Origin: Verrucomicrobiia bacterium
GTDB taxonomy: Bacteria; Verrucomicrobiota; Verrucomicrobiia; Limisphaerales; Pedosphaeraceae
Direction of reading: 5' to 3'
DNA length: 64,000 nucleotides
Assembly (NCBI GenBank): GCA_036268055.1
Contig: DATAUW010000017.1
Span: 372,001 to 436,000, forward strand
This document shows, piece after piece, positions 35,460-37,571 of this stretch. Numbering within the stretch: the stretch's first letter is position 1; each line of letters starts with the position of its first letter. The notes under the pieces are model-generated. The model saw nothing but the letters and a program-made list of their open reading frames with translations, did no database searches and had not been told where the DNA came from. A program made the translations under genes and the position numbers.

Positions 35460-35589
35460 CCAGAGGTAGTTTGTCTGAGGTTTTCTTCTAATCGCGAGAT
35501 TCGTTTATCGCGGTGGTTCACACTGGGCGGTTCTCACCAAGCCGGTTCGCACGTTTGCGTTTGGCATTGGTGATGCTCATTACGAATTG

Positions 35590-35818
35590 TAATGGCTGAG
35601 GGATTAGCCGGCTCAGGTTGGGGCCGCAAATTTAGGATTGGTTCCTCAGTTCATGGTTCGTTGGTTCGTTGGTTGGTTGGATCGAACAGGCACGTTGAGT
35701 GGTCCGGCACTGTTTTTCCGGCGGTGCCGGGAAGCTGCTCAACAAATTGAGTCCTCTAGTCGGGTTCTCGCCGGTGCGCAAGCGCCGAACGAGACCGGGG
35801 TAGGGGACTCTTTTTTTT
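35590..35818 (+). ncRNA. Candidate structured non-coding RNA ending in an intrinsic terminator
   Basis: Part of the 807-base gap between mscL and aroF (35460-35589 shows nothing clear). Nested pairings occur in order: CTGAGG 35596-35601 with CCTCAG 35644-35649; GTTGAG 35694-35699 with CTCAAC 35738-35743, enclosing CCGGCAC 35704-35710 with GTGCCGG 35724-35730; then GAGTCC 35749-35754 with GGACTC 35805-35810, enclosing a CTCG/CGAG helix and CGGTGC-GCAA-GCGCCG (35772-35787) with a GNRA tetraloop. Eight T follow at once (35811-35818). It matches none of the motifs I know for tmRNA, RNase P RNA, SRP RNA or 6S RNA. A stretch with GTTGGTTC-type short repeats lies at 35655-35681. Confidence 0.45.
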
Positions 35819-35850
35819 ACGGTTTATCGCGCCGGTGAATTCTTTTTTTG

Positions 35851-36020
35851 ACGCAGAGGCGCAGAGGTCCTTGCGGACGGCCACTGGGAGAAAAAATTTA
35901 GCGGATTAAACACGATAGGAAATTTTTCTTTTTGTGTTCAACGAAATTTTTTTCTAGTCAGTGTTTGATCGGTGTTTAATCTGTGGCTTCACGTTTTTGT
36001 TTTTCTCTGCGCCTCTGCGT
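35851..36020. mobile_element. MITE-like element, ACGCAGAGGCGCAGAG family, copy 2
   Basis: A 170-bp non-coding element bounded by a perfect 16-base inverted repeat: ACGCAGAGGCGCAGAG at 35851-35866 and its reverse complement at 36005-36020. A second, nested perfect inverted repeat lies inside: GATTAAACAC at 35904-35913 and GTGTTTAATC at 35972-35981. The inner part is AT-rich. The terminus also occurs at 15084. Positions 36021-36102 show no feature beyond the leader's presumed promoter. Confidence 0.7.
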
Positions 36021-36102
36021 TAAGGCTGATGATAAAGAACCGGGAGCGTACACGTCGCACGGCCGCACTTGACGGCGGGGATTCCTCTGTTAGGCTGAAA
36101 AC

Positions 36103-37302: not shown

Positions 37303-37571
37303 AAGTCCTGCAAGGGACGAAAGAAGCGGGCGAATATTTTTCGGAATGTGGATAGAAAGATTTGAGATTTCTTTCGTCCCTGGTGGGACTTGAATCGGAG
37401 GAAATCAATACCCAGCAATAAATTGCTGGACTAAGATCGGCCGTCCCTCCGGGACTTCGGACGGCTGCGCGGCAGCGCAGCCCTACCATGCGCTAGAATA
37501 TCAGTTGTCCCTGCGGGACTTCGGGCGGCGGAGCAGCGGCTCCGCCCTACCGTGCACTGGAATATTATCGG
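37303..37571. repeat. Cluster of hairpin repeats after aroF
   Basis: The 326-base gap after aroF is made of palindromes. A 23-base imperfect inverted pair lies at 37303-37325 and 37369-37391 (AGGGACGAAAGAA shared). CCAGCAAT-AA-ATTGCTGG is at 37412-37429. Two tandem units of about 64 bp begin at 37443 and 37507, each opening with a GTCCCT-GGGAC hairpin and continuing with a second GC-rich hairpin: GGCTGCGC/GCGCAGCC at 37463-37482 and GGCGGAGC/GCTCCGCC at 37527-37546, then CCTACC. The units differ in sequence inside the stem but both sides change together, so pairing is kept. No gene is seen. Confidence 0.75.

What the first reader, a model, noticed from the sequence alone, without database searches (positions are those of the whole stretch)
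35590..35818. Dense hairpin block ending in a terminator: candidate new structured RNA
At least six helices of 6-8 bp nest in order over 230 bases with no credible gene, including a GNRA-capped stem and a final GAGTCC/GGACTC closure directly followed by T8. It lies on the same strand as mscL, 130 bases after its stop, and before a palindromic element. It fits none of the common housekeeping RNAs I compared from memory.
Basis: seen in the sequence. Interest (0 to 1): 0.6.

Follow-up and report, generated by a model that had tools for sequence, protein, structure and literature searches.

The report
New sigma-54-driven structured bacterial RNA
Between two ordinary genes of an uncultured Verrucomicrobia (Limisphaerales) bacterium lies a previously unlisted small structured RNA that is conserved across its order, sits behind a nitrogen-type (sigma-54) promoter, and usually trails a tiny membrane-protein gene that this genome has lost while keeping the RNA.

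Summary
The hairpin block is real (fold z = -6.5; conserved core z = -8.4) and is a new RNA family, not chance. Covariance models built here recover it in 26 genomes of the same order (Limisphaerales/Pedosphaera group) and in none outside the order in a 384-genome sample of the class. 35 of 43 base pairs show two-sided compensatory changes (0/500 shuffles reach this). Rfam has nothing matching, and the genome's 6S RNA is elsewhere. In nearly all relatives a 46-77-aa membrane ORF (APLGYQDExGFH) lies between promoter and RNA. The window genome and one distant relative (G171) lack that ORF at the locus but keep promoter plus RNA. Hfq was not found in any of 14 genomes; rpoN is present in all 14. 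Best explanation: a sigma-54/enhancer-protein-dependent, Hfq-independent small RNA, made as the 3' UTR of a microprotein mRNA or alone. Expression, processing and targets are untested.

The parts
35561..35577 (+). sigma-54 (-24/-12) promoter TTGGCATTGGTGATGCT; predicted transcription start about 35588
   Evidence: Only exact match of TTGGCAY-N5-ATGCT in the 64-kb window; the equivalent box is upstream of the RNA in all 25 loci, background 0.014 per locus; no sigma-70-like promoter found; rpoN present
35588..35818 (+). predicted primary transcript of the RNA, about 231 nt
   Evidence: 12 nt after the -12 element to the end of the T8 run; inference from promoter and terminator positions
35592..35654 (+). 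5' hairpin specific to this genome, where relatives carry the microprotein ORF
   Evidence: minimum-energy fold; only its 3' part (GGAUUGGUUCCUC) is shared with G006
35664..35687 (+). possible P0 hairpin (GUUCG...CGAAC)
   Evidence: weak here; a P0 hairpin at this place is well supported in families f9 and f62
35694..35743 (+). P1 hairpin with conserved GG(U/C)CCG...CGG-NAA-NCC and a 3-nt side bulge
   Evidence: R1-R3 models, covariation
35749..35810 (+). P2 long hairpin AGUCCUCU...AGGGGACU
   Evidence: covariation, 17 of 20 outer pairs with two-sided changes
35811..35818 (+). T8 tract after P2: intrinsic-terminator-like 3' end
   Evidence: sequence

Best explanation
A new family of sigma-54-dependent small structured RNAs of the Limisphaerales. 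An enhancer-binding activator, probably via the TGTC-N29-GACA element where present, fires a -24/-12 promoter. The transcript ends at the P2 hairpin. In most species it first encodes a 46-77-aa single-span membrane microprotein and carries the RNA (P0-P1-P2) as its 3' UTR, which may be released at the conserved AUUUGU stretch by an RNase E/G-like cut. In the window species and in G171 the ORF is gone from the locus and the promoter drives the RNA alone, which argues that the RNA is a product in its own right. It most likely acts in trans without Hfq, probably through protein recognition of the conserved bulged P1 hairpin or through exposed loops. SHOWN: conserved structure, promoter motif, order-wide distribution, ORF context and its absence in two genomes, no Hfq found, rpoN present. 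INFERRED: expression, start site, processing, trans action. UNKNOWN: the target.
For: Covariation: 18 of 43 pairs in 8 sequences and 35 of 43 in 26, with 0/500 shuffles and all slid registers far lower. Found in 24 of 320 genomes of the order plus G087 and G055. Independent check: 46 loci found by the microprotein's peptide motif alone; 17 carry the RNA on the coding strand just after (or overlapping the end of) the ORF, and 37 have the sigma-54 box. Promoter in 25/25 RNA loci. TGTC-N29-GACA in 10 loci against 0.085 expected. In G171 the predicted start falls within about one base of the conserved (A)AUUUGU 5' edge of the RNA. The ORF is absent at the locus in G000 and was not found anywhere in G171, with RNA and promoter kept. 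Hfq 0/14, rpoN 14/14, RNase E/G 7/8. Precedents: GlnZ, from the 3' UTR of sigma-54-driven glnA (PMC9731577); GlmY, sigma-54-driven decoy RNA (PMC7073468).
Against: No expression data. Two ORF losses among 25 loci is a small number, and G171 is only 86% complete. The ORF also exists without the RNA (G017, G066 and the second ORF type), so the two are separable both ways. The window lacks the canonical TGTC-N29-GACA element. P0 is weak in the window's own family. RNase E/G was not found in G171. No target was identified.
Confidence: 0.62

Rival explanations
1. It is only the 3' end structure of the microprotein mRNA: P1 stabilises the message and P2 terminates it, and where aroF is convergent P2 also serves as a bidirectional terminator. 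There is no trans function.
For: The RNA follows the ORF in most loci; P2 is nearly palindromic (antisense model hits) with A-rich and U-rich flanks; aroF is convergent next to it in many genomes.
Against: Sequence as well as pairing is conserved across families (invariant GG/CCG/CGG/CC around an NAA bulge), which a terminator does not need. Several members have poor U-tracts (G006, G001). Promoter plus RNA persist without the ORF in the window genome and G171. In the window aroF is not convergent.
Confidence: 0.27
2. It is a cis-regulatory leader (riboswitch or attenuator) of aroF, which starts 420-450 bases downstream on the same strand in the window.
For: Position and the terminator-like end in this one genome.
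Against: In nearly all other aroF-linked genomes aroF lies on the opposite strand, convergent; in several RNA-bearing genomes aroF is not adjacent at all.
Confidence: 0.02
3. It is a divergent member of a known housekeeping RNA (6S, SRP, RNase P, tmRNA).
For: Size, single copy, strong structure; a superficial GGUCCG...GAAGCC resemblance to part of E. coli 6S (from memory).
Against: No Rfam match even in permissive mode; 6S is found elsewhere in the same genome; restricted to one order; driven by a sigma-54 box.
Confidence: 0.02
4. Type I toxin-antitoxin-like unit: the small hydrophobic ORF is a toxin and the RNA controls it.
For: Small hydrophobic ORF with an adjacent structured RNA.
Against: The RNA is on the same strand and 3' of the ORF, not antisense; the ORF has a conserved polar tail (GYQDExGFH...NPS); the RNA persists without the ORF and the ORF without the RNA.
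Confidence: 0.05

Closest known systems
GlnZ sRNA (3' UTR of glnA, Enterobacteriaceae; PMC9731577)
   Same: sigma-54/enhancer-activated mRNA whose 3' UTR is a small RNA with its own terminator; release by RNase E; the small RNA and the protein share one promoter
   Different: GlnZ needs Hfq (none found here), pairs through a short conserved seed, and the parent gene is glutamine synthetase; no sequence relation was seen
GlmY/GlmZ (RapZ-binding sigma-54 RNAs; PMC7073468)
   Same: GlmY is a sigma-54-driven stand-alone structured RNA that acts by binding a protein and not by pairing
   Different: RapZ is not next to rpoN here and was not searched genome-wide; no Rfam GlmY/GlmZ match; found only in Limisphaerales
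Acido-Lenti-1 RNA (RF01687)
   Same: small structured RNA; one copy lies at 37411-37456 of this window
   Different: 46 nt, different structure, no relation detected
6S RNA (RF00013)
   Same: single-copy structured RNA of similar length
   Different: 6S is present elsewhere in this genome; this RNA is a row of hairpins, not a bubble-bearing rod

Membership tests
sigma-54-dependent transcription unit | -24/-12 promoter (TGGCAY-N5-TTGCW type) | tested here: met
   25/25 loci, background 0.014 per locus; exact match at 35561-35577
sigma-54-dependent transcription unit | rpoN in the genome | tested here: met
   PF04552 in 14/14 genomes
sigma-54-dependent transcription unit | upstream enhancer site for an activator | tested here: inconclusive
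   TGTC-N29-GACA in 10 of 25 loci (0.085 expected), 27-bp version visible in 2, not in the window
structured RNA family | compensatory base changes across homologues | tested here: met
   35 of 43 pairs, 0/500 shuffles; 18 of 43 on the unfitted 8-sequence alignment
3' UTR-derived small RNA (GlnZ-like) | RNA lies directly 3' of an ORF and ends in a terminator | tested here: met
   in most relatives; not in the window or G171, where it stands alone; U-tracts are poor in some members
3' UTR-derived small RNA (GlnZ-like) | Hfq dependence | tested here: not met
   no Hfq in 14 genomes; the control search rings in 5 known genomes
3' UTR-derived small RNA (GlnZ-like) | cleavage by RNase E at an AU-rich site | not testable with these tools
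   enzyme family present in 7/8 genomes and AUUUGU recurrent; cleavage not observed
GlmY/GlmZ | match to the Rfam family | tested here: not met
   no Rfam match
GlmY/GlmZ | RapZ binding | not testable with these tools
   RapZ not adjacent to rpoN; not searched genome-wide
6S RNA | covariance-model match | tested here: not met
   the genome's 6S lies on contig C19

The most novel reading that the evidence does not exclude
A two-product sigma-54 module unique to Limisphaerales: a membrane microprotein plus a protein-binding (decoy-type), Hfq-independent RNA with a conserved bulged hairpin, under an as yet unidentified enhancer-binding protein. RNA and microprotein are separable, with each surviving alone in different lineages.
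Probability: 0.3. Interest if true: 0.75.

Novelty: new variant of a known kind. Interest (0 to 1): 0.62.

Why it matters
Regulatory RNAs of Verrucomicrobiota are little charted, and no Hfq was found in the genomes tested. This is a well-supported new family with a defined promoter, likely start and end, and a clear test: is it RpoN-dependent and what does it bind? The natural loss of the ORF with retention of promoter and RNA separates coding from RNA function in a way that is rarely available for 3' UTR RNAs.

Tried and rejected
Plain DNA similarity found only one homologue beyond the dispersed repeat, so covariance models were needed. The mscL-anchored search gave few relatives with the RNA: mscL linkage is not general. 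aroF-leader and 6S hypotheses rejected. Pfam and NCBIfam do not know the microprotein. RapZ next to rpoN: not seen, so a GlmY-type partnership was not supported. RNAalifold did not recover P0; P0 rests on per-locus helices. The simple terminator scan does not call P2. The second microprotein type (..IPVGYQDETGFH..W) does not carry this RNA. Paper searches found no description of it, but the library lacks most subscription papers and one relevant survey could not be opened.

Full report
CHECK. The block 35590-35818 folds far better than shuffles (z -6.5), and its 125-nt core has z -8.4. It lies 130 bases after mscL and about 420 before aroF, all on the + strand. No Rfam family matches at gathering score or in permissive mode.

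HOMOLOGUES. DNA similarity gave one homologous hit, in genome G006 (L002), with the same two hairpins. A two-sequence covariance model (R1) found nine of 196 relatives, one copy each. An eight-sequence model (R2) found 24 of 320 genomes of the order. A 26-row model (R3) added G087 and G055 and found nothing outside the order in 384 genomes of the class. Named records for the same or related loci are MAGs labelled Pedosphaera, Limisphaerales and Verrucomicrobia subdivision 3, plus a few differently labelled bins. The order was only searched with R2, so the distribution is a lower bound.

STRUCTURE. P1: a hairpin whose GG-(U/C)-CCG...CGG-NAA-NCC frame with a 3-nt side bulge is nearly invariant. 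P2: a long irregular hairpin AGUCCYYU...AGGGGACU. Covariation: 18 of 43 pairs with two-sided changes in 8 sequences and 35 of 43 in 26; 0 of 500 shuffles match, and the covariation score of slid registers is at most about a third to two fifths of the real one. The 26-row alignment was fitted to the model and contains one antisense row, so the 8-row MAFFT alignment is the cleaner test. A third small hairpin P0, preceded by a recurrent AUUUGU, is clear in families f9 and f62 but weak in the window's family.

PROMOTER AND CONTEXT. Every one of 25 loci has a -24/-12 box upstream; the background rate is 0.014 per locus. In most relatives a 46-77-aa membrane ORF starts 20-32 bases after the start of the box (consensus ..GLxxELxAxxxAPLGYQDExGFHxG...NPS), and the RNA usually starts 38-92 bases after the ORF stop. 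In G171 the box is only 53 bases before P1 and the predicted start falls within about a base of the AUUUGU edge. No microprotein was found anywhere in G171 (86% complete), and only a different paralogue, itself behind a sigma-54 box and without the RNA, in the window genome. Searching by the peptide motif alone gave 46 loci: 37 with the sigma-54 box and 17 with the RNA on the coding strand. This is evidence independent of the RNA model.

REGULATION. Ten of 25 loci have TGTC-N29-GACA, eight of them ending 39-41 bases before the box (0.085 expected); G176 and G204 have a version ten bases shorter, one helical turn. The element also precedes other microprotein genes and a few unrelated genes. rpoN is present in all 14 genomes tested, Hfq in none of 14, RNase E/G in 7 of 8.

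SYNTENY. Where conserved, the order is suf-type iron-sulfur genes - (mscL) - ORF-RNA - convergent aroF - surA-like - pdxA-like (gene names from my reading of the sequences). In the window aroF instead points the same way as the RNA. An aroF-leader role is therefore excluded as the general function.

MECHANISM. Shown: conserved structure, promoter motif, context, ORF absence in two genomes. Inferred: activator-dependent transcription; termination at P2; release from the microprotein mRNA by an RNase E/G-type cut near AUUUGU; Hfq-independent action, perhaps by protein binding to P1. GlnZ (3' UTR of sigma-54-driven glnA, RNase E-released; PMC9731577) and GlmY (sigma-54-driven decoy RNA; PMC7073468) show that both halves of the model exist in nature; neither is a relative. 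The main rival, a pure 3' UTR/terminator role, is not excluded.

VERDICT. A genuine new RNA family of a known general kind, with an unusual and testable arrangement.

Noticed in passing
L090-L135; own genome G000 C38:32752-32901 (L160): A family of about 50-aa membrane microproteins with GYQDExGFH, 37 of 46 behind a sigma-54 promoter, unknown to Pfam and NCBIfam; at least two types, one with a tryptophan-containing tail and without the RNA.
   Followed up: partly
L069-L071, L079, L080, L084: The TGTC-N29-GACA plus sigma-54 arrangement also precedes other genes (transglutaminase-like, response regulator, pseudopilin): a possible regulon of an unidentified enhancer-binding protein.
   Followed up: partly
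L050-L065, P2 loop: Distal members expose a recurrent UCCGCGUGUC-like loop in P2, absent from the window's family.
   Followed up: partly
window 35848-35898 and 36005-36023: GACGCAGAGGCGCAGAG inverted-repeat element, dispersed in at least 11 further copies in this genome.
   Followed up: no
window 37411-37456: Acido-Lenti-1 RNA (RF01687) just downstream of aroF.
   Followed up: no
L036 (G007): The microprotein ORF appears frameshifted after APVG while promoter and RNA are intact; a possible third ORF loss or an assembly error.
   Followed up: no
L138-L157: The RNA locus lies beside a suf-type iron-sulfur gene cluster in several families.
   Followed up: partly
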